This document shows positions 26,382 to 53,007 of a stretch of 64,000 nt of DNA, piece after piece; position 1 is the stretch's first letter; every line of letters begins with the position of its first letter. A model generated the notes under the pieces. The model had not been told where the DNA came from. It was given only the letters and a program-made list of their open reading frames with translations, and ran no database searches. Made by a program: the position numbers and the translations under genes. This DNA comes from Lysobacter sp. yr284 (lineage in GTDB: Bacteria > Pseudomonadota > Gammaproteobacteria > Xanthomonadales > Xanthomonadaceae): assembly GCF_900107375.1 (NCBI RefSeq), contig NZ_FNPT01000011.1:62001-126000 (forward strand). Direction: 5' to 3'.

Positions 26382-29171
26382 GTGCACCGCCATCTGCTGA
26401 CCGCCGCCATCGGCGCCGCGCTGACCGCCGCCGCGATCGCCGCCCCCGCCCGCGCCCAGGACGCCGCGCCGCCCGCTTCGGCGCCGACCGAGATCGACAA
26501 GGTTACCGTCACCGGCTCGCTGATCCCGCGCAGCGAGATCGAGACCGCCACGCCGGTGATTTCCATCAGCGCCGAGAACATCAAGCGCCAGGGCTTCAAG
26601 GACGTCTACGACGTGCTGCGCGCGCAGCCGCTGGCCACCGGCGCGGTGCAGGACAGCCAGTACACCGGCGGCTTCACCACCAACGCCGAGCCGATCAGCC
26701 TGCTCGGCCTGGACCCGGGCTTCACCCTGGTGCTGATCGACGGCCGGCCGATGGCCGACTACCCGCTGCTCTACAACGGCCAGAGCAACTTCACCGACCT
26801 GGCCAGCATCCCCACCGCGATGGTCGAGCGCATCGACATCGCGCCGGGCAACCAGTCGGCGATCTACGGCTCCAGCGCCATCGCCGGCGTGGTCAACATC
26901 ATCCTCAAGAAGCGCGTCGACGGCACCCACCTGAACTTCCGCTTCGGCGGCTACGACGGCGGCGGCGGCGAGAACGCGCGCCTGCAGCTGATCGGCGGCA
27001 AGGAAGTCGGCGCCTTCAGCCTGACCTACGGCCTGCAGTACAGCATGCAGGACCCGATCTACGGCTACGACCGCCGCCGCATCGACTCGACCAACGACAA
27101 TCCCGATCCGGACGCGCGCTACGGCTCGCGCAACTTCGTGCGCATCAACGCCGACGTGCTGCCCAACGAATACATCGACCCGGGCGCGGCCTGCGGCGCC
27201 CTGGGCAACCTGTTCAACGGCACCCTGACCCGCGACTTCCGCCCCGGCCGCGGCTACTACTGCGGCAGCCGCGAAGACGTCGGCTACCTCACGATCATGA
27301 ACCGCAAGCGCGACCTCAGCGGCTACTTCAACGCGTCCTACGCGCTCAACGACCGCACCGAGCTGTACGGCACGCTGCTGGTCGGCCACAACAAGTCCGA
27401 AGCCAACCCCGGCACCCGTTTCTGGACCACCTCGGTGGACACCAACGGCATCTTCTACAACGACACCAGCGGCCGCTACGAGACCTACCAGCGCGTGTTC
27501 GCGCCGGAGGAAACCGGCGACGTCGACGCCACCAACGAGCGCCAGACCAGCGACTCCTACAACCTCGCCTTCGGCGGCCGCGGCAGCCTGGGCGAATCGA
27601 ACTGGAACTACGACGCCTACTTCGCCCGCTCGCAGTACAAGGTCGACAGCAAGCAGCGCTGGCTGCTCAGCGCGGCCGCCGACGACTTCTTCGAGCGCCG
27701 CTTCCTCGGCCCGGTGATCGACCACGTCGGCCCCTATCCGGTGTACGCGCCGACCGACGACAGCGGCTTCTACCGCGCGCTGACCCCGGCCGAGTTCAAC
27801 AGCATCACCGACATCATCCGCACCAAGTCCGAGACCTGGACCCAGAACTTCAACCTGCAGCTGACCAACACCGAGCTGTTCCACCTGCCGGCGGGCGCGG
27901 TCGGCTTCGCCACCGTGCTGCAGGCCGGCGAACAGTCGTGGAAGAACCCGACCGACCCGCGCGTGGTCGCCGGCGACTTCTTCAGCCTCACCGGCACCCA
28001 GGGCCAGGGCAAGCGCCGCAACCAGGCGATCGGCGTCGAGTTCCGCGTGCCGATCTTCAGCCAGCTCACCGCCAGCCTGTCGGGCCGCTACGACAAGTAC
28101 AAGAACGTCGGCGCCGGCACCGATTCCGACGGCACCTACAAGATCGGCCTGGAATACCGCCCGGTCGAGTCGCTGCTGCTGCGCGCCAACTACGCCACCG
28201 CGTTCAAGGCCCCGGACATGGCCTACGTGTTCGCCGGCGACAGCGGCTACTACACCAGCGTGGTCGACTACTACCGCTGCGCGACCGAAGAGCCCGACGA
28301 AAGCATCGGCAACTGCACCTACAACGCCGAATCGGTGTCCGGCCGCCGCAGCGGCGCCAAGGACCTCAAGTCGATCACCGCCAAGTCCTGGGGCGCCGGC
28401 GTGCTGTGGGCGCCCAGCGGCAACTTCGACGTCAGCGTCGATTACTACAGCATCAAGATCGACGACGAAGTCAACGACCTCAACATCGACGCGGTGCTGC
28501 GCAACGAATCGGCCTGCCGCCTGGGCCAGATCGACCCGTCGTCGCCGACCTGCGCGGACGCGCTGGCGCGCATCACCCGCCTGCCCGCGGACGCGCCGGT
28601 GCCGCTGCAGCTCGACAGCGTGCGCACCAACCCGATCAACGTGTCCAAGGAAGAAGTGCGCGGCCTGACCGCCAAGCTCAACTACCGCTGGCAGACCGAC
28701 AGCTGGGGCTCGTTCGCGCTGGGCGCGAACTACAACGTGACCCTCAAGCACGAGAACCAGCAGTACCCGGGCGACCCGACCATCGACTACTTGCGCGACC
28801 CGTTCTACTCCTCCGAGTTCAAGAGCATCGGCAGCGCCTCGCTGAGCTGGAACAAGGGCCCGTGGACCACGACCCTGTACGGCGTGCGCTACGGCAGCAC
28901 CCCGAACTACGCCGCCCAGGTCGACCCGTCCGGCTACTCGGCCGAGAACGGCGGCCGCATGCGCGCGCACCTGAGCTTCAACGGCAGCGCCAGCTACGAG
29001 TTCGGCGACGACCTGTCGCTGAGCTTCACCGTCAACAACCTGTTCAACAAGATGCCGCAGCGCGACAAGACCTTCGACGTCTACCCGTACTACAACTCGC
29101 TGAACTACAACATCTACGGCCGCTCGTACATGGTCGAGGTGAACTGGAAGTTCGGGGCCAGCTCGCAGTAA
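26382..29171 (+). CDS. TonB-dependent receptor
   Basis: 929-residue outer-membrane active transporter. I start at GTG 26382, 10 bases after AGGAG, which gives a clean signal peptide (1-26, HRHLLTAAIGAALTAAAIAA then PARAQ); 49 upstream codons have no signal character. Plug domain about 40-160: VTVTGSLIPRSEIETATPV, FTLVLIDGRPM and VERIDIAPGNQSAIYGSSAI with VVNIILKK. The barrel ends GRSYMVEVNWKFGASSQ rather than with a terminal Phe. The plug style (SLIPRSEIETATPV, GLGxxxTLVLIDGRP) is that of the large xanthomonad receptors annotated for peptide or carbohydrate uptake, but no substrate gene is linked. Extra cysteine pairs in the barrel (CGALGNL...YYC) suggest loop disulfides. Confidence 0.93.
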   Translation: MHRHLLTAAIGAALTAAAIAAPARAQDAAPPASAPTEIDKVTVTGSLIPRSEIETATPVISISAENIKRQGFKDVYDVLRAQPLATGAVQDSQYTGGFTTNAEPISLLGLDPGFTLVLIDGRPMADYPLLYNGQSNFTDLASIPTAMVERIDIAPGNQSAIYGSSAIAGVVNIILKKRVDGTHLNFRFGGYDGGGGENARLQLIGGKEVGAFSLTYGLQYSMQDPIYGYDRRRIDSTNDNPDPDARYGSRNFVRINADVLPNEYIDPGAACGALGNLFNGTLTRDFRPGRGYYCGSREDVGYLTIMNRKRDLSGYFNASYALNDRTELYGTLLVGHNKSEANPGTRFWTTSVDTNGIFYNDTSGRYETYQRVFAPEETGDVDATNERQTSDSYNLAFGGRGSLGESNWNYDAYFARSQYKVDSKQRWLLSAAADDFFERRFLGPVIDHVGPYPVYAPTDDSGFYRALTPAEFNSITDIIRTKSETWTQNFNLQLTNTELFHLPAGAVGFATVLQAGEQSWKNPTDPRVVAGDFFSLTGTQGQGKRRNQAIGVEFRVPIFSQLTASLSGRYDKYKNVGAGTDSDGTYKIGLEYRPVESLLLRANYATAFKAPDMAYVFAGDSGYYTSVVDYYRCATEEPDESIGNCTYNAESVSGRRSGAKDLKSITAKSWGAGVLWAPSGNFDVSVDYYSIKIDDEVNDLNIDAVLRNESACRLGQIDPSSPTCADALARITRLPADAPVPLQLDSVRTNPINVSKEEVRGLTAKLNYRWQTDSWGSFALGANYNVTLKHENQQYPGDPTIDYLRDPFYSSEFKSIGSASLSWNKGPWTTTLYGVRYGSTPNYAAQVDPSGYSAENGGRMRAHLSFNGSASYEFGDDLSLSFTVNNLFNKMPQRDKTFDVYPYYNSLNYNIYGRSYMVEVNWKFGASSQ

Positions 29172-29189
29172 GCGGGCGCGTCGCGATAA

Positions 29190-29222
29190 AAGAAAAAGCC
29201 GGCGAAAGCCGGCTTTTTCTTT
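29190..29222 (+). terminator. Rho-independent terminator of the receptor gene
   Basis: AGAAAAAGCCGGC, loop GAAA, GCCGGCTTTTTCT; ends in a T-rich run 20-50 bases after the stop codon. The A-run on the other side could make it act in both directions, although glyS ends 165 bases away. Confidence 0.92.
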
Positions 29223-29246
29223 GGCGTGGGAAGTCCCTTCCTTGCC

Positions 29247-29272
29247 TGTGGGAGGGCCTTCAGGCTCGACGC
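29247..29272. repeat. REP-like element, family B, single arm
   Basis: Single copy TGTGGGAGGGCCTTCAGGCT then CGACGC, one base different from the family B core. Lies between the receptor terminator and the glyS 3' end. Confidence 0.75.
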
Positions 29273-29331
29273 CCTTCGCTCAGGTCGCGACGCCATTCCA
29301 CGCTTCGGCCCTTCGCCGCATCCCGACTGCC

Positions 29332-29361
29332 GCGGTCGCGGCTCGCGCCGCTCCTACAGGA
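29332..29361. repeat. REP-like element, family C, single arm
   Basis: GCGGTCGCGGCTCGCGCCGC followed by TCCTACAGG, 27 bases before the glyS stop codon. Confidence 0.75.
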
Positions 29362-29387
29362 GGGCGCGACGCAGGCGCGGCGATGGG

Positions 29388-31571
29388 TCAGATCGACAGA
29401 TGCTCGATCGCCGCCACGCTGCCCAGGCGGTCGGACAGGCGCTTGAGCAAGGCCAGCCGGTTGTTGCGCACCGCCGCGTCGTCGACGTTGACCATGACCT
29501 TGTCGAAGAACGCATCCACCTGCGGCCGCAACCGCGCCAGGCGGCCGAGCACGGCGACGTAGTCGCGCTGGGCCAGCAGCGGATCGGTGTCGGCGACGGC
29601 GGCGTCCACCGCCTCGGCCAGCTCGCGCTCGGCCGGCTCGGCGAACAGCGCCGGGTCGATGGCTTCGGGAACCTCGCCCTCGACCTTCTTGAGGATGTTG
29701 CGGCTGCGCTTGTTGGCGGCGGCGAGGGCCTCGGCTTCGGGGAGCTTGGCGAATTCGGCGATGGCAGTGAGGCGGCGATCGAAGTCGGCCAGATTCGAAA
29801 CACGCAACGCAACCACGGTTTCAAATTGCTGCGCAGGAACTCCACGATCTGCGTAGTAGCTCCTCAAACGATCTATAACAAAATCATAAATTTCGCTGGT
29901 TTCAGCCAAAAATTCTTCGCGATTCAAAACTATCTGTGCGCTTTGCTCGGCACCAACGTCAATACCTGCAAACTGCGCCAACTCAGCAGCCATTTGCTTG
30001 CGCTTTTGCTCGGAATCGAGCTCAGCAACAATGACGCAAATTTGAGCCTTACGAATTGAATGAACGAAGTCGATGTCCACATCACCTTCGATCAGCGTTC
30101 TCGCCAAACCAAGAGCATTGCGCCGAAGAGAGAAGGGGTCCTTGTTCCCCGTTGGCTTTAAGCCCGCCTTAAAACCACCAGCCAGGGTATAAAGCCGCTC
30201 TGCAATGGCGACGACCTGACCAAGCTTAGATGGCGCGATCGAATCGCTGGAAAATCTCGGCATGTATGCGTAATCAATAGCATCAGCGACGGCCGCATCT
30301 TCTTTCCTTGCACTAGCGTAATAGCGCCCAGCGATGCCTTGCAGCTCGGGAAATTCGTTAACCATTCGAGACTGGAGGTCATTTTTTGAAAGTTCTGCCG
30401 CGCGCTTCGCTTGTACTGGATCGGCGCCACATTCTTTCGCAACTTCTACAGACAACCAAGCGACCCGCGCCACCTTATCGGCCACGCTCCCCAGCTTGTC
30501 CTGATACTTGACCGTCTTCAGCCCGTCGCCCATCGACGCCAGCCCCTGCTTCAGGTCCTCGTCGAAGAAGAACTTCGCATCGGCGAAGCGCGGGCGAATG
30601 ACGCGCTCGTAGCCCTTGCGCACCTCGGCCGCGTCGCGGCTCTCGATGTTGGCCACGCCGACGAAGCGCTCGGTCAGCTGGCCCGAGGCGTCGAGCACCG
30701 GGAAGAACTTCTGGTTCGCTTCCATCGTCGCGATCAGCGCTTCCTGCGGCACCGCCAGGAACTCGCGTTCGAAGCTGCAGGCCACCGCCACCGGCCATTC
30801 GGTGAGGCCGTTGACTTCTTCCAGGATGCCCTCGTCGATGCGCGCGCGGCCGCCGTCGGCGCTGGCGGCGGCTTCGACTTCGCGCACGATGCGCTCGCGG
30901 CGCTCGTCCGGATCGACCAGCACGAACGCGGCGCGCAGCGATTCGACGTAGTCCTGCGGCGCGCTGAACCACACCGGCTTGTCGTGCATGAAGCGGTGGC
31001 CGCGGCTCATGCGGTCGCTGCTCACGCCCAGCGCCTGCGCCGGCACCACGTCCTTGCCCAGCAGCGCCACCAGCCAGTGCACCGGACGGGCGAAGCCGTA
31101 GTCGTGGTCGCCCCAGCGCATCGGCTTGGGAATCGGCATCGCCGCGATCGCCTCGCGCACGACCTCGCCGAGCAGGCTGGCGGTGTCGGCGCCGGGCTTG
31201 ACCGCGCGGTGGACGAAACGCTCGCCCTTGTTGTCGCTGGTCTTCTCCAGCGCCGTCCACTCGACCCCGGCCTTGGCCGCGAAACCCTGCAGCGCCTTGG
31301 TCGGCTGGCCGTCGCCGTCGAGGGCGATGTTGAGATACGGCCCGAGCACTTCGCTGCGCTGTTCGGGCTGCTGCGTGTCGACCGCGCCCAGCAGCACGGC
31401 CAGGCGGCGCGGGGTGTACAGCGGCTTGGCGCCGTTGCGGTCGAAGCCGACGCCGCGCTTGTGCAGGCCGTCGAGCACGCCGTCGAAGAAGGCCTGGGCC
31501 AGGCCCGGCAGCGCCTTGACCGGCAGTTCTTCGGTGCCCAGTTCGATCAGGAGGGGTTGGGTCGTGCTCAT
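29388..31571 (-). CDS. glyS: Glycyl-tRNA synthetase beta subunit
   Basis: 727-residue subunit of the alpha2beta2 glycyl-tRNA synthetase; it binds tRNA-Gly while GlyQ carries the catalytic site. N-terminus PLLIELGTEELPVKALP, the segments MRWGDHDYGFARPVHWL and EANQKFFPVLD, HD-like RAAELSKNDLQSRMVNEFPELQG and DKDPFSLRR-type NKDPFSLRRNALGL (about 485-498), and a C-terminal anticodon-binding domain with KVMVNVDDAAVRNNRLALL are all present and the frame is intact. The central part, nucleotides 29821-30480 (about residues 364-584), has only about 50 percent GC and many A/T-ending codons, whereas both ends have about 60-70 percent: the gene looks like a recombination mosaic. Downstream of glyQ, separated by a 120-base hairpin-bearing gap. 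Confidence 0.97.
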   Translation of the reverse strand: MSTTQPLLIELGTEELPVKALPGLAQAFFDGVLDGLHKRGVGFDRNGAKPLYTPRRLAVLLGAVDTQQPEQRSEVLGPYLNIALDGDGQPTKALQGFAAKAGVEWTALEKTSDNKGERFVHRAVKPGADTASLLGEVVREAIAAMPIPKPMRWGDHDYGFARPVHWLVALLGKDVVPAQALGVSSDRMSRGHRFMHDKPVWFSAPQDYVESLRAAFVLVDPDERRERIVREVEAAASADGGRARIDEGILEEVNGLTEWPVAVACSFEREFLAVPQEALIATMEANQKFFPVLDASGQLTERFVGVANIESRDAAEVRKGYERVIRPRFADAKFFFDEDLKQGLASMGDGLKTVKYQDKLGSVADKVARVAWLSVEVAKECGADPVQAKRAAELSKNDLQSRMVNEFPELQGIAGRYYASARKEDAAVADAIDYAYMPRFSSDSIAPSKLGQVVAIAERLYTLAGGFKAGLKPTGNKDPFSLRRNALGLARTLIEGDVDIDFVHSIRKAQICVIVAELDSEQKRKQMAAELAQFAGIDVGAEQSAQIVLNREEFLAETSEIYDFVIDRLRSYYADRGVPAQQFETVVALRVSNLADFDRRLTAIAEFAKLPEAEALAAANKRSRNILKKVEGEVPEAIDPALFAEPAERELAEAVDAAVADTDPLLAQRDYVAVLGRLARLRPQVDAFFDKVMVNVDDAAVRNNRLALLKRLSDRLGSVAAIEHLSI

Positions 31572-31649
31572 GCGGTGGCCTTTGCGGTGTCGCCGCGCGT
31601 CCTGCGGACGGCGCCGGGAATGTTTCGACGATGCGGGGTAGAACCCTCA

Positions 31650-31685
31650 CCCCAACCCCTCTCCCGCGAGCGGGAGAGGGGCTTC
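31650..31685. repeat. Hairpin repeat between glyQ and glyS
   Basis: CCCTCACCCCAACCCCTCTCCCGC-type element, quoted in parts: CCCTCACCCCAACC then CCTCTCCCGC, loop GAGC, GGGAGAGGGG. An intergenic palindrome of the kind widespread in xanthomonads. Between co-directional glyQ and glyS it could modulate the transcript ratio of the two subunits. Confidence 0.7.
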
Positions 31686-31691
31686 ATGAGG

Positions 31692-32624
<933 letters not shown>

Positions 32625-32654
32625 GGTCTCGTCTGCGCTGCGGCAAAGCGGGTT

Positions 32655-32682
32655 AGTATAGCGGCGAGCCCTGAAATTTCAG
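32655..32682 (-). promoter_or_regulatory. glyQ promoter with a perfect 12-base palindrome
   Basis: On the minus strand a -10 hexamer TATACT (32660-32655) lies about 30 bases before the glyQ ATG. Where the -35 box should be there is the palindrome CTGAAATTTCAG (32671-32682). A dyad overlapping the -35 region is a plausible operator; the regulator is unknown. The divergent gene starts 60 bases away. Confidence 0.45.
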
Positions 32683-32741
32683 GACTTTTGCCCCGAGCCG
32701 GGCCATTATTGGCCCTCCCCCGCCGTACCCGCCAGCGCCCC

Positions 32742-33467
32742 GTGAAGCCGCCCTTCCTGATCCTCGAGACCGGCCAGCCGGTCCCCTCCATGCGCCGCCA
32801 TCGCGGCTTCCCGCATTGGATCCGCGTCGCCGCCGGCCTGGGCCGGGACGAGGCGGTGGTGGTCAACGTCGCGGGCGGCGACGCGCTGCCCGGCCGCGAC
32901 GGCTTCGCCGGGGCCATCGTCACCGGCTCCGGCGCGATGGTCACCGACCGCGCCCAGTGGAGCGAGCGCAGCGCGCAGTGGCTGGGCGAGGCCGCCCACG
33001 CCGGGCTGCCGCTGTTCGGCATCTGCTACGGCCACCAGTTGCTGGCGCATGCGCTCGGCGGCGAAGTCGGCAACCACCCGGGCGGGCGCGAGATGGGCAC
33101 GGTGCACCTGGAACTGCACCCCGCCGCCGCGGCCGACCCGCTGTTCGCCGGCCTGCCGGCGCGCTTCCCGGCCCAGGCCACCCACTTGCAGACGGTGCTG
33201 CGCGCGCCCGAAGGCGCGACGGTGCTGGCGCGCTCGGCCCACGACGCCTGCCACGCCTTCCGCTGGGGCGAGCGCGCCTGGGGCGTGCAGTTCCATCCCG
33301 AATTCAGCGCCGGCCACATGCGCGGCTACGTGCGCGCGCGCCAGGACGCGCTGCGCAACGAGGGCCTGTGCCCGCGCACGGTGACGCGCGAGATCAGCGC
33401 GGCGCCGCACGCGCGCCGGGTGCTGCGCCGCTTCGTCGGCCACGCCCGCGCGCTGCACGGCCGCTGA
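32742..33467 (+). CDS. Class I glutamine amidotransferase-like protein
   Basis: 241-residue GATase1-fold protein of the GMP-synthase-like group. Catalytic triad visible: nucleophile Cys95 in GICYGHQLLAHALGG and His185/Glu187 in VQFHPEF. The first strand KPPFLILETGQPVPSMR requires the GTG at 32742; the next ATG (32790) would remove it. No synthase domain is fused, so it either partners another enzyme or acts on gamma-glutamyl compounds. Divergent from glyQ. Confidence 0.88.
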   Translation: MKPPFLILETGQPVPSMRRHRGFPHWIRVAAGLGRDEAVVVNVAGGDALPGRDGFAGAIVTGSGAMVTDRAQWSERSAQWLGEAAHAGLPLFGICYGHQLLAHALGGEVGNHPGGREMGTVHLELHPAAAADPLFAGLPARFPAQATHLQTVLRAPEGATVLARSAHDACHAFRWGERAWGVQFHPEFSAGHMRGYVRARQDALRNEGLCPRTVTREISAAPHARRVLRRFVGHARALHGR

Positions 33468-33519
33468 CCGTGCCCGCCGCGCCGGCGCCGCCGCATCCGT
33501 CACGCCCGCCCGCTTCGCC

Positions 33520-49249: not shown

Positions 49250-49858
49250 ATGTTCAGGCCGATGTTTTCACTCAGCGTTTTTGTGCTTTTTGTGTGCGCT
49301 GGAACCAGCCATGCGGCGAGCACGCCGTTCGTCGTGGTTCGTCAGACCATCGACTCGGTGATGGCGCCCAAAACCCCGATCGACGTTTTCGTCGAATGCG
49401 CCAACAACGCTACCTGCCGCGGGCTGGCCGACGCCGGCGGCAGTTATCTGGGCATGCAGCCTGGCGAGATCTCGGCGGCGCTGGCGCGGGTGCCCGCGCC
49501 CAGGCGCGCGGGCGAGGAGTCGTGGATTTCCATCGAGCTTCCGACCGGTTATCAGTACTGTCGCTCGTCGATCCGCACGATCTCGGTCGTGCCCGCGAGC
49601 GGCGACCGCGCCTCGGTGATGGGCGCGACGTCGAATCCGCGTGGAGTCGGCGTGTACACCTGGACGCCGAAGGGGAAGTTCGGCGATGGCAGAAGTTGGG
49701 TCGAAGCGGAGTACACGGTCTACGGCGTGCGCGACGACCTCGCCGAGCGCAAGCGCGCGCAAGGCGCGTGCCGCCCGATCGGCGGCGAGCTGATCAGCTG
49801 CCGCGGCGCCCGCGGCGTCAACAAAGGCATGCCCGCGTGCGGGCTCAAGGAAGACTGA
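49250..49858 (+). CDS. Secreted protein of unknown function
   Basis: 202 residues with an excellent AGGAGGAAAGG ribosome site. Signal peptide 1-23 (MFSLSVFVLFVCAGTSHAA). Mature part has six cysteines (in FVECANNATCRG, QYCRSSI, GACRPIGG, ISCRGARG, PACGLK), so three disulfides are likely, and a beta-rich centre (GVGVYTWTPKGKFGDGRSWV). No family recognised. Divergent from the LuxR-type regulator, 139 bases between starts. Confidence 0.75.
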   Translation: MFRPMFSLSVFVLFVCAGTSHAASTPFVVVRQTIDSVMAPKTPIDVFVECANNATCRGLADAGGSYLGMQPGEISAALARVPAPRRAGEESWISIELPTGYQYCRSSIRTISVVPASGDRASVMGATSNPRGVGVYTWTPKGKFGDGRSWVEAEYTVYGVRDDLAERKRAQGACRPIGGELISCRGARGVNKGMPACGLKED

Positions 49859-49918
49859 AGCCGGGCACTACTCCGCCTGACAGGCGAGTCGCGGCAACGG
49901 CTCGCCTGCAGGTCCCGC

Positions 49919-52783
49919 TTACTCGCCGGATGCCGGCCGCGTACCCTCGGCCGCCGGCTTGGCCGCCATCTCCGGACTGATCTTCTCGATCGTATGCCGC
50001 AGTTCGCGGCCGAGGATGACCTTGGCGTCCTTGGCCCAGGTGTCCAGGCGTTGGTCGAAGGCCAGCTTGTTTTCGCTGTCGGGCCACACCAGGCGCAGCT
50101 CGCGCAGCTTCTGGATGAAGCCGCGGAACAAGGTCTTGTCGAAGAATTCCGGCGCGGCCGGGGCGTACAGCAGCGACAGCCGTTGTGCCGCGAGCTGGCA
50201 CAGGCTCTCCAGTTCCGCCGCCGACAAGGTGCCCGGGCCGTTCTTCACCAGCACCGAAATGGCGATGTAGTAGCGCTCGAACGCCTGTTGCAGCGAGTGG
50301 CCGATGGCACGCAGACGGAACACTTCGTCGGTCTGGCCGGCGTTGCGGGCGAGGATGCCGCCGTCGTCGTCGCTGACTTTCTCCAGCAGGCCTTCGCGGA
50401 TGAACACCTCGACCGTGCGCGCCAGGCGCTGGGCGAATTCGTCCTCGCTCCACGGCAGGAACAGCTCGGCCTGCAGGAACGGGTACACGCTGCGGCCCAG
50501 GCGCAGCACGCCGGCCAGGCTCATGCGCCGGTTGTGCTGGAAGCAGCAGGCGATCCACGAGGCGGCGGTGAACAGGTGCAGGACGTTGTTGCGGAAGTAG
50601 CTCAGCAACACCGCCTTGTCCTCGTCCACGCCGAGCACGTCGCCGAGCGGATGGGCGATGCGCTCGAGCACGTTGATCTCTTCGCCGTGGGCGACGATTT
50701 CCTGCGGCGTGTGCGGGGTCACGGTGACGCGGTCGGAGTACGGCAGTTCGGCCAGCAGGGTCTTGCTCAGCGCGATCTGCGCGAGCAGGTCGGCCTCGCC
50801 CATCGCGTGCTTGGGCGTGGACAGCAGCGCCAGCGCCAGCAGGTTGATCGGGTTGACGTCGGCGGCGCGGTTGACGTTGACCTGGATCCGCTGCGCCAGC
50901 GCATCGACGGTGTCGGACAGCCACTGCGGCTTGTCGTCTTCCTCCAGCGGGCGGCCGTCCCACTGCGGCGCGTGCTCGGCGAGCATGTCGCCGAGCTTGA
51001 TCGGCTCGCCGAAGTTCACCACCACCTGGCCGTAGTTGGAGCGCAGCACCTTGGGAATGCCCCACAGCAGCTGCCAGATCGATTCCTTCTCTTTCGGCTT
51101 GCCCGACAGTTCGTCGAGGTAGCTGTTGCCCTCCATCAGCTTCTCGTAGCCGATGTAGACCGGCTGGAACAGCACCGGACGGGTGGGCTGGCGCAGGAAG
51201 CCGCGCACGGTCATCACGATCATGCCGCCCTTGGGCGGCAGCAGCCGGCCGGTGCGCGAGCGCCCGCCTTCGATGAAGTACTCGATCGAGTAGCCGCCGG
51301 CGACCAGCTGCGCCACGTATTCGGAGAACACCGCCGAGTACAGCGCGCTGCCGCGGATGCTGCGGCGCAGGAAGAACGCGCCGCCCTTGCGCAGGATCGT
51401 GCCGACTACCGGCAGGTTGAGGTTCACGCCGGCGGCGATGTGCGGCGGCACGATGCCCTTGGTGTACAGCAGGTAGCTCAGCAGCAGGTAGTCGAGGTGG
51501 CTGCGGTGGCAGGGCACGTACACCACTTCGAAGCCGGGCGCTTCCTGCTTGAGCTTGTCCAGGTGATGGACCAGCACGCCGCGGTAGATGCGGTTCCACA
51601 CCGGGGTCAGCAGGAAGCTGGCCGAGCGCACCACCGGGTGCGAATAGTCGGCGGCGATCTCGTAGGCCATCGCATGCGCTTTCTTCCACGCCTCGGCGAC
51701 ATCGGTGCTGTCGCGGCGGGCCTGGTCGGCGATGGCTTCCTTGACCGGGTCGCTGGCGAGCACGCGGTCGATCAGCATGCGCCGGGTCGACAGGTCCGGC
51801 CCGATCACCGCCGCGCGGATGCGGCGGAAGTGGGTGCGCAGCACGCGCGAGAGCTTGCGCACCGTGCGTTCGGGCTCCAGCCCTTCGTCGACGATGCCGC
51901 GCAGCGACACCGGCGGCGAGAACCGCACCGTGGTGTGGCGGCCGTTGAGCGCGATCGCCAGCAGCCGGCGGAAGCGGCCGACCAGGGTCCAGTTTTCCGA
52001 GAACAGCACCGAGAACCAGCCGCTGGTGCGGTCCGGCGCGCGGCCGACGAAGATCGACACCGGCACCAGCTGCACGTCCAGGGCGCGGTCGCCGCGGTGC
52101 GCGTCGAGCAGCCGCGCCAGCGAGCCCGAATGGGTCTTGGCCGACGGCGGCCCGGCCGGCGCCAGGGTGCCGGCGTTGCGCCGCGACAGCGCGACGTAGG
52201 CGCGCTTGCGCCCGAGCGGATCGCCCGGCAGCGGCTGCAGCGGCGAGGGCAGGCCGCTCTCGCGGCAGGCGCGCTCCAGGATCAGCGCGTTGGACAGGCC
52301 GTAGTCCTCGAGCACGTAGCAGACCGGGCGGCCGTGCCATTGCTCGGCGATGTGCTGCTGTGGGTTCTTCGGCTCGATGGTCAGCGAGACCCACGGCGCC
52401 ATCAGCTGGCCGAGCAGGCGCGCCCACCACGGGCGCGGCGCGGGCGCGGCCGGGTCGGCGGCAGGCGCGGCCGCCGCGGCGGGCGCGATCGGCAACTCGG
52501 CTTGTTCCGGGTCGTGATCGGGTGCGGCGGGCGGGTCGGTGCGGCCGGGCGCGGCTTCGCCGCGCTCGGCGGCCACGGGGCCGGGACGATCGGAAGGATT
52601 CGGGTCGGACGCTTGGGGCATGTTCGATGGGGCTGGCGTGGCGCTGGCGCGGCCCTGCTCCGGGTCGGCGGCGGGATCGGGTCGATCCGTCGCGGCCGGC
52701 GCGGCGTCGCCCGGTGCAGGCGCGGCATCGGCCGGCACGGCGTCGGGGAACGGCAGGGGCGTCTGTTTCGGCATTGCCGGCAT
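49919..52783 (-). CDS. plsB: Glycerol-3-phosphate acyltransferase
   Basis: 954-residue membrane-bound enzyme acylating sn-glycerol-3-phosphate at position 1, the first step of phospholipid synthesis. Acyltransferase blocks: HRSHLDYLLLSYLLY (block I HxxxxD), GAFFLRRSI (II), YFIEGGRSRTGRLLPPKGGM (III) and VLFQPVYIGYEK (IV). E. coli PlsB is 807 residues; here about 115 extra N-terminal residues are Ala/Pro/Asp-rich and disordered, before WWARLLGQLMAPWVSLTIEP where the conserved protein begins. Confidence 0.95.
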   Translation of the reverse strand: MPAMPKQTPLPFPDAVPADAAPAPGDAAPAATDRPDPAADPEQGRASATPAPSNMPQASDPNPSDRPGPVAAERGEAAPGRTDPPAAPDHDPEQAELPIAPAAAAAPAADPAAPAPRPWWARLLGQLMAPWVSLTIEPKNPQQHIAEQWHGRPVCYVLEDYGLSNALILERACRESGLPSPLQPLPGDPLGRKRAYVALSRRNAGTLAPAGPPSAKTHSGSLARLLDAHRGDRALDVQLVPVSIFVGRAPDRTSGWFSVLFSENWTLVGRFRRLLAIALNGRHTTVRFSPPVSLRGIVDEGLEPERTVRKLSRVLRTHFRRIRAAVIGPDLSTRRMLIDRVLASDPVKEAIADQARRDSTDVAEAWKKAHAMAYEIAADYSHPVVRSASFLLTPVWNRIYRGVLVHHLDKLKQEAPGFEVVYVPCHRSHLDYLLLSYLLYTKGIVPPHIAAGVNLNLPVVGTILRKGGAFFLRRSIRGSALYSAVFSEYVAQLVAGGYSIEYFIEGGRSRTGRLLPPKGGMIVMTVRGFLRQPTRPVLFQPVYIGYEKLMEGNSYLDELSGKPKEKESIWQLLWGIPKVLRSNYGQVVVNFGEPIKLGDMLAEHAPQWDGRPLEEDDKPQWLSDTVDALAQRIQVNVNRAADVNPINLLALALLSTPKHAMGEADLLAQIALSKTLLAELPYSDRVTVTPHTPQEIVAHGEEINVLERIAHPLGDVLGVDEDKAVLLSYFRNNVLHLFTAASWIACCFQHNRRMSLAGVLRLGRSVYPFLQAELFLPWSEDEFAQRLARTVEVFIREGLLEKVSDDDGGILARNAGQTDEVFRLRAIGHSLQQAFERYYIAISVLVKNGPGTLSAAELESLCQLAAQRLSLLYAPAAPEFFDKTLFRGFIQKLRELRLVWPDSENKLAFDQRLDTWAKDAKVILGRELRHTIEKISPEMAAKPAAEGTRPASGE

Positions 52784-52918
52784 TATGCCTATTCGGCCCC
52801 AGGCCGGGCCCCGGACGGCGGGCCGCGGCGCGGCGGCCGGCGACGGGACGCATGTGTGCCCTGGGTGGCGACGCCGGCGTCACCGCGCCGGCGGCGGTTG
52901 CCGCGGCGGTCGGCCGCT

Positions 52919-53007
52919 GTTGGGGGAGGGCCTTCAGGCCCGACGCGGTTGCGCCAAGTCATCGCGATCCGACCGAACGGCGTCGGGCTTGAAGGCCCTG
53001 CCACAGC
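52919..53007. repeat. REP-like palindromic pair, family B
   Basis: GGGGGAGGGCCTTCAGGCCC then GACGC, about 32 bases, then GCGTCGGGCTTGAAGGCCCT then GCCACAG in inverse orientation. It occupies the gap between plsB and the lipoprotein gene. Confidence 0.82.

What the first reader, a model, noticed from the sequence alone, without database searches (positions are those of the whole stretch)
29821..30480. Low-GC mosaic tract inside glyS
My hand count over these 660 bases gives about 331 G+C (50 percent), with one 60-base line at 37 percent, while the next line upstream in the gene is 65 percent and the rest of the window is near 70. The edges are abrupt, the reading frame is intact, and the encoded residues (about 364-584) still read as GlyS. 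The simplest explanation is homologous replacement of part of an essential housekeeping gene by DNA from a lower-GC relative. Alternatives are an embedded antisense RNA or selection for weak structure or slow codons.
Basis: partly seen in the sequence, partly recalled or inferred. Interest (0 to 1): 0.75.

Follow-up and report, generated by a model that had tools for sequence, protein, structure and literature searches.

The report
Swappable arm in essential tRNA enzyme
A piece of an essential enzyme that loads glycine onto tRNA has been replaced in this bacterium, and in its relatives the same small segment differs from species to species and is shared across genera, like alleles kept in circulation by some unknown pressure.

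Summary
The low-GC tract is real: best-fit edges are glyS codons 371-593 (window 30461..29793), GC3 0.47 inside, 0.93 outside. Against the closest relative (G008) the protein is 98% identical on both sides but 75, 10 and 43% over residues 371-500, 501-558 and 559-593. Segment replacement is the simplest reading.

It is not a one-off. Residues 501-558 are a hypervariable segment ('arm') right after the tRNA-reading helix. In 28 disjoint pairs of close relatives the arm is under 40% identical in 20; the preceding HD part is under 90% in 3, the anticodon domain in 1, the helix after the arm in 19. In one genus, 30 of 35 species carry 10 arm classes. Classes cross genera; a tree of residues 1-370 rejects each of five tested classes as one clade. 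Within classes the arm evolves as constrained protein. Arms not shared with the nearest sister dip more in GC.

My reading: recurrent import of arm alleles, favoured by something that recognises GlyRS. The exchange is well supported; the selecting agent is inferred. I found no description in print.

The parts
29388..31571 (-). glyS, glycyl-tRNA synthetase beta subunit, 727 aa
   Evidence: ORF; PF02092 E 4e-182 and PF05746; AlphaFold2 model mean pLDDT 94 matches E. coli GlyRS beta 7yse, TM 0.74 by query, 0.83 by target
29793..30461 (-). low-GC replaced tract, codons 371-593
   Evidence: maximum-likelihood changepoints on GC3; drop of identity to the nearest relative
30072..30461 (-). residues 371-500: HD-domain part within the tract; 75% identical to the nearest relative, GC3 0.50; includes the tRNA acceptor-stem reading motif GNKDPFSLRR
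   Evidence: motif role from passages of PMC9908026 mapped by the alignment
29898..30071 (-). residues 501-558: hypervariable arm, this gene's allele (no classmate among 131 long arms)
   Evidence: model: helix 502-534, turn, helix 551-575
29793..29897 (-). residues 559-593: helix after the arm and what follows, 43% identical to the nearest relative
31692..32624 (-). presumed glyQ, alpha subunit, upstream partner gene; no tract (GC3 0.95)
   Evidence: ORF, GC3; the name is recalled, no family search was run on it

Best explanation
The tract is one allele of a recurrently exchanged cassette inside the glyS gene of Lysobacteraceae. The variable core is an arm (window residues 501-558), modelled as a helical hairpin, directly after the helix that reads the tRNA-Gly acceptor stem. 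Homologous recombination through the conserved sequences on either side replaces the arm, usually with the helix that follows it and sometimes, as here, with several hundred bases of linked HD-domain DNA. The arms exist as many discrete, mutually unalignable classes that circulate across genera. They tend to be AT-richer than their hosts, most clearly when the allele is not shared with the sister species. I infer that diversity is favoured because some antagonist (a phage protein, toxin or other inhibitor) recognises GlyRS by its arm, so that a lineage gains by importing a different, still functional arm. Supported by data: replacement, recurrence, class sharing across genera, protein-level constraint within classes, absence from a sample outside the order. 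Inferred: that the arm protrudes, the recombination route, the antagonist, selection for novelty, and the reason for the low GC.
For: Edges and composition. Identity 97/98/75/10/43/98% to G008 along the protein. Of 28 disjoint pairs with N-part identity >=95%, arm identity is <40% in 20, the HD part <90% in 3, the anticodon domain <90% in 1, the helix after the arm <90% in 19. In four pairs of genera g20 and g30 nucleotide identity falls from mostly 90-100% to 24-48% at the arm and recovers within tens of codons; three Lysobacter pairs show broader shoulders. In genus g30, 30 of 35 species: flanks 94-97% identical on average, arms 28%, ten classes of sizes 7,5,5,3,2,2,2,2,1,1. 131 long arms fall into 72 classes (cut-off 0.35 of the self score, my choice); 22 have two or more members and at least eight of those cross genera. 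Class labels need 46 changes on the tree of residues 1-370, minimum 21, shuffles 57 or more; AU tests on 67 of the 185 genes reject one clade for the five classes tested (p 1e-66 to 9e-5). Within classes dN/dS in the arm is 0.02-0.56 in the 34 of 40 pairs with a finite value. Arms not shared with the nearest sister have a median GC3 dip of 0.33 (n 59), shared ones 0.09 (n 14), p 6e-5. In 140 kb around glyS of the pair G118/G183, glyS is the only internal one of the 12 largest divergent patches listed. No second GlyS match in the window's genome, so no silent cassette detected there.
Against: No antagonist, donor or linked partner was found. The tract in plasmids and phages gave only matches under 60% identity, those annotated being glyS; three arms, each in one collection, gave none; ten arms match no Pfam or PHROG family convincingly. 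Class frequencies in g30 are more even than neutral but not significantly (F 0.14 vs 0.185, p 0.12). Within-class dN/dS shows purifying, not positive, selection. One genome per species, so coexistence of alleles in a population was not seen. For residues 371-500 the tree does not reject vertical descent of this gene (AU p 0.53). Some lineages keep one high-GC arm (L006/L008, L011/L012). A first version of the regional control listed other ORFs with internal low-identity windows, e.g. one of 5155 aa in G118/G183; they fell out by its demand for 90% identity outside the patch or by lying at an ORF end.
Confidence: 0.55

Rival explanations
1. Single recent homologous replacement of part of glyS from a lower-GC relative, of no special meaning.
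For: Fits the window gene alone: abrupt change, 98% flanks, low GC.
Against: The same place is hit repeatedly in the family; no donor above 67% over most of the tract in 297 family genomes; in the 140-kb control region glyS is the only internal one of the 12 largest patches listed.
Confidence: 0.1
2. Neutral permissive arm: the arm may be any stable extension, recombination here is frequent for mechanical reasons (conserved anchors on both sides), and alleles drift between lineages without selection.
For: Arm length and modelled fold vary; class frequencies in g30 do not depart significantly from neutral; strongly conserved flanks could serve as anchors.
Against: Purifying selection within classes; imports mostly spare the HD part and anticodon domain; classes recur across genera; 20 sampled genera of other orders have a 22-33 residue segment and no GC3 dip above 0.2.
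Confidence: 0.25
3. In situ change: relaxed constraint or a local AT-biased mutation process rewrote the segment without import.
For: Tree of 371-500 does not reject kinship with the sisters; the HD part is still most like Lysobacter (80% to L004 and L007).
Against: Different codon in 60 of 98 unchanged residues over 130 codons, next to DNA about 97% identical; classes shared across genera; within-class purifying selection.
Confidence: 0.05
4. Nucleotide-level constraint: embedded RNA, antisense gene, slow codons or weak structure at a domain border.
For: Mean GC3 of 130 long-arm genes dips at the same place (0.60-0.62 at 501-560).
Against: Short-arm genes hardly dip there (0.84); some long arms are 0.85-0.95 GC3; no Rfam match at E <= 1 in the tract; the arm DNA is not conserved between close species.
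Confidence: 0.04
5. Escape from GC-biased conversion explains the low GC: unalignable alleles cannot pair, so they drift to the mutational AT bias although the site is often exchanged. This is an add-on to the main explanation.
For: Dip is larger in arms not shared with the sister; GC content of a gene rises with evidence of intragenic recombination in bacteria (abstract of PMC4450053).
Against: In the window gene the dip runs 130 codons into alignable HD sequence; foreign origin followed by amelioration fits the same numbers.
Confidence: 0.3

Closest known systems
Alpha2-beta2 bacterial GlyRS, beta subunit (GlyS)
   Same: Fold, domains, conserved tRNA-reading motif; match to 7yse.
   Different: E. 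coli and 20 sampled genera of other orders have a short segment (22-33 residues in the 20) where Lysobacteraceae often carry a 38-74 residue variable arm.
Multi-allelic recognition loci exchanged by recombination (recalled: restriction specificity subunits, surface antigens, immunity genes)
   Same: Discrete deep classes, sharing across species, sharp edges with near-identical flanks, AT-rich alleles.
   Different: Inside an essential cytoplasmic translation enzyme; no known partner; no silent cassette detected in the window's genome.
Ordinary mosaic housekeeping genes
   Same: Homologous segment replacement with intact frame.
   Different: Replacement recurs at one place of about 60 codons in many genera, with unalignable contents.
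Xanthomonadales 2-aa insert in GlyS (PMC3568101, passages)
   Same: Same protein and order.
   Different: A short conserved insert used as a marker; the passages seen do not mention a variable arm. The supplementary figure was not seen, so its position is unknown to me.

Membership tests
GlyRS beta subunit (PF02092) | Pfam profile over residues 7-587 plus DALR anticodon domain | tested here: met
GlyRS beta subunit (PF02092) | HD-domain motif reading the acceptor stem (G-x-KDPF-x-LRR) conserved | tested here: met
   positions P473, G475, D478, L482, R483, R484 invariant in 93 sequences; role from passages of PMC9908026
Trans-species multi-allelic polymorphism | Allele classes shared between species and genera, contradicting the tree of the rest of the gene | tested here: met
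   tree of residues 1-370; classes
Trans-species multi-allelic polymorphism | Several alleles coexist within one population | not testable with these tools
   the collections used hold one genome per species
Trans-species multi-allelic polymorphism | Allele frequencies more even than neutral | tested here: inconclusive
   g30: F 0.14 vs 0.185 expected, p 0.12
Variation from silent cassettes in the same genome | Further donor copies of the cassette in the genome | tested here: not met
   one match only in G000 at E <= 0.001 with the full protein and with the tract
Intein, intron or other inserted mobile element | Inserted unit with its own nuclease or splicing blocks, or non-coding sequence | tested here: not met
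   arm is 58 codons, in frame; other arms are protein-constrained within classes, no convincing family match, no Rfam match in the tract
One-off transfer from a lower-GC relative | Identifiable low-GC donor | tested here: not met
   no listed match above 67% over most of the tract in 297 family genomes; plasmids and phages under 60%

The most novel reading that the evidence does not exclude
The arm of GlyRS is a recognition tag in a bacterial conflict: phages or competitors carry proteins that bind GlyRS through the arm or the adjacent tRNA-reading surface, and Lysobacteraceae escape by trading whole arm alleles across genera. This would be a multi-allelic, incompatibility-like system built into an essential translation enzyme. 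Two related viral contigs carry a small protein with a GlyRS-like HD piece (PF02092, E 5e-16 and 3e-16, about 45 residues; the window residues matched are 445-486, the arm starts at 501), which hints that phages can exploit this surface, though their host is unknown.
Probability: 0.3. Interest if true: 0.9.

Novelty: new variant of a known kind. Interest (0 to 1): 0.72.

Why it matters
Aminoacyl-tRNA synthetases are usually treated as core genes and used as phylogenetic markers (recalled). Here one of them holds a small cassette that behaves like accessory genome: swapped between genera while most of the gene stays put. If an antagonist drives it, GlyRS would be an unrecognised battleground, and the arm classes would point to the partner. 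If not, it is still a clean natural case of how a core gene can host freely exchanged, AT-rich alleles, and a caution for GlyRS-based trees and for inhibitor design against the HD domain as proposed in PMC9908026 and PMC8464048 (passages).

Tried and rejected
Embedded RNA: Rfam search of 28501-33500 found nothing in the tract at E <= 1. Phage or plasmid origin: the tract gave only matches under 60%; three arms searched, each in one collection, no match; window GlyS in IMG/VR by short patterns, no match, by profile five loci, best 57% over a 42-residue piece and 42% full length. Arm as a known domain: ten arms against PHROGs and Pfam, nothing convincing. Donor in the genus: 20 of 20 genomes match the tract; besides itself the best-scoring is 61% identical, the highest over most of the tract 67%, and 76-78% over its first 130 residues only. 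Evenness test: not significant. The first regional control used a filter that missed or ranked glyS low; it was replaced by a patch search. Literature: no paper on a variable arm or recurrent exchange in glyS in the searches (open-licence PubMed Central only; judged from listings, except PMC9908026, PMC8464048, PMC3568101 and PMC4866539, of which I saw passages, and PMC4450053, of which I saw abstract and outline).

Sampling limits: the 185 genes are 110 loci, 30 and 100 fetched, identical copies dropped (240 to 185). The fetched ones come from the listed part, which favours genes like the window's and hence long arms, so the share of long arms is not a family estimate. Of g30 the five lowest-scoring of 35 species got no locus and are not. 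The class survey is 20 genes taken near the top of a listing of 138 matching genomes. Genus codes and names can denote the same genus (equal contig lengths: L054 and L165, L058 and L164, L078 and L190), so class c0 spans at least 7 genera and c1 at least 5. Alignment between arm classes has no meaning; arm identities are from pairwise global alignment.

Full report
Observation. glyS (window 31571..29388, minus strand) carries a real low-GC tract. The 660-base GC scan of the window has its minimum there, 49.8%, and the next lowest separate window is 62.7%. GC3 changepoints fall at codons 371 and 593. At four-fold sites the tract has A+T 55%, the rest of the gene 1-2%. The genome has one GlyS match.

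Replacement. The nearest relative, G008 of the same genus (Lysobacter, judged from genes identical to those of named loci), is 97, 98, 75, 10, 43 and 98% identical over residues 1-180, 181-370, 371-500, 501-558, 559-593 and 594-727 (the arm value is from the pairwise alignment, it is 4% in the multiple alignment). Where the two share the residue in 371-500, 60 of 98 codons differ. The simplest account is replacement of the segment. A donor was not found, and the short tree of 371-500 does not by itself reject descent with the sisters (AU p 0.53; the window's branch is 0.34 against 0.036-0.057 for the four sisters).

Recurrence. I collected 185 distinct glyS genes of the family and a few of the order. 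Residues 501-558 correspond to a length-variable arm, mostly 20 to 74 residues. Arm GC3 lies more than 0.2 below the N-terminal part in 92 of 185 genes: in 2 of 53 with arms under 30 residues and in 90 of 132 with longer arms. Averaged over 130 long-arm genes, GC3 is about 0.6 at 501-560 and mostly 0.82-0.92 elsewhere; 53 short-arm genes have 0.84 there. Among 28 disjoint pairs with N-terminal identity of at least 95%, median identities are 0.97 (N part), 0.97 (HD part), 0.24 (arm), 0.83 (559-593) and 0.97 (anticodon domain); arms are under 40% in 20 pairs, and 559-593 is under 90% in 19, so the exchanged piece usually includes the helix after the arm. In four g20 and g30 pairs nucleotide identity drops from mostly 90-100% to 24-48% at the arm and recovers after it; in three Lysobacter pairs the drop has broader shoulders. 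Within Lysobacter several low-GC tracts reach beyond the arm, as in the window gene, in L003 and L004, and in L015, where the anticodon domain is also only about 70% identical to its relatives.

Classes. 131 arms of 38 residues or more cluster into 72 classes at my cut-off, 50 of them single. Multi-member classes recur in distant genera: c0 (13 arms) in at least 7 genera, c1 (11 arms) in at least 5. On the tree of residues 1-370, labels of the 22 shared classes need 46 changes (minimum 21; 500 shuffles gave 57 or more), so classes are partly inherited and partly exchanged. The AU test, on 67 of the genes, rejects each of classes c0-c4 as one clade. In genus g30, 30 of the 35 species found fall into ten arm classes, and 386 of 435 species pairs have arms under 35% identical although the flanks average 94-97%. 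The evenness of those classes is not significantly above neutral (p 0.12).

The arm behaves as protein. In 40 same-class pairs with arm identity of at least 60% (not independent), dN/dS was 0.02-0.56 in 34, synonymous change was saturated in 4, one pair was identical and one had two nonsynonymous changes only. In many of these pairs synonymous divergence of the arm exceeds that of the N part, so even same-class arms in congeners are often older than the split or came in separately. The window's own arm has no classmate, so this was not tested on it.

Structure. The model of the window protein (mean pLDDT 94) matches E. coli GlyRS beta (7yse, TM 0.74 by query, 0.83 by target). The arm is modelled as a helical hairpin, helices 502-534 and 551-575, with block pLDDT from 96 at its base to 67 at the turn. 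The 74-residue class in L208 is modelled differently, with two short strands and extra helices (block pLDDT 60-95). The arm follows the helix whose N-terminus and preceding loop contact the first base pairs and U73 of tRNA-Gly in E. coli (passages of PMC9908026; alignment). I saw secondary structure and confidence only, so that the arm protrudes, and where it points, is not determined.

Range. In 20 genera of other orders of the class the segment is 22-33 residues and shows no GC3 dip above 0.2. The three genomes of a neighbouring family of the order (f2) have segments of 39-55 residues with lower GC3 in or next to them.

Control. In 140 kb around glyS of G118 and G183, of the 12 largest divergent patches listed among 124 ORF pairs (overlapping frames included; identity outside the patch at least 90%), eleven lie at or within 7 columns of an ORF end and only glyS is internal. 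In the window against G008 (77 ORF pairs), glyS and one region near 50 kb have patches with at least 50 columns on both sides among the 12 listed. An earlier, looser filter listed other ORFs with internal low windows, including one of 5155 aa.

Why low GC. Arms shared with the nearest sister dip by a median 0.09 (n 14), unshared ones by 0.33 (n 59; p 6e-5). This fits recent import followed by amelioration, or escape of unalignable alleles from GC-biased conversion (abstract of PMC4450053). The data do not separate these.

Mechanism. Recombination in the conserved flanks would move the arms; import is common, the contents are diverse, constrained and widely shared. I take diversifying pressure by an antagonist as most likely and neutral exchange of a permissive arm as the main rival. 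No antagonist was found. A lead: two related viral contigs (L315, L316) encode a protein of 173-179 residues whose C-terminal part matches PF02092 (E 5e-16 and 3e-16, residues 119/120-164), the piece of GlyRS with the tRNA-reading motif; their host is unknown and no further relative was found in IMG/VR by short patterns.

Verdict. Observation confirmed, interpretation partly right; the feature is a recurrently exchanged, hypervariable arm of GlyRS in Lysobacteraceae, of which the window holds one allele with long linked flanks, most likely recently acquired.

Noticed in passing
L315:2653-3174 and L316:2653-3192: Two related viral contigs (IMG/VR) encode a small protein with a GlyRS beta HD-domain piece (PF02092, E 5e-16 and 3e-16) covering the tRNA acceptor-stem reading motif; no PHROG match.
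   Followed up: partly
window about 49850-53000: Against G008 an indel of about 75-95 columns shows in two overlapping ORFs; the only other internal patch besides glyS among the 12 largest listed in the window comparison.
   Followed up: no
window 31641-31686, minus strand: Sub-threshold Rfam match to Antizyme_FSE (35 bits, gathering 40) between the presumed glyQ and glyS; the stretch holds a GC-rich hairpin by eye, probably chance.
   Followed up: no
L015 (same gene as L052, Lysobacter sp. Root76), codons about 450-690: Low-GC tract extends through the anticodon-binding domain, which is only 67-72% identical to the 17 relatives compared.
   Followed up: partly
H25, H26, H27: glyS is annotated on records labelled Acinetobacter phage MD-2021a and Microcystis phage MaAM05 (240-274 kb); whether true phage genes or contamination was not checked.
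   Followed up: no
L025, L049, L053, L066, L078, L079, L082: A second length-variable insert of very roughly 15-50 residues lies further on, near residues 589-593 of the window protein, in several lineages.
   Followed up: no
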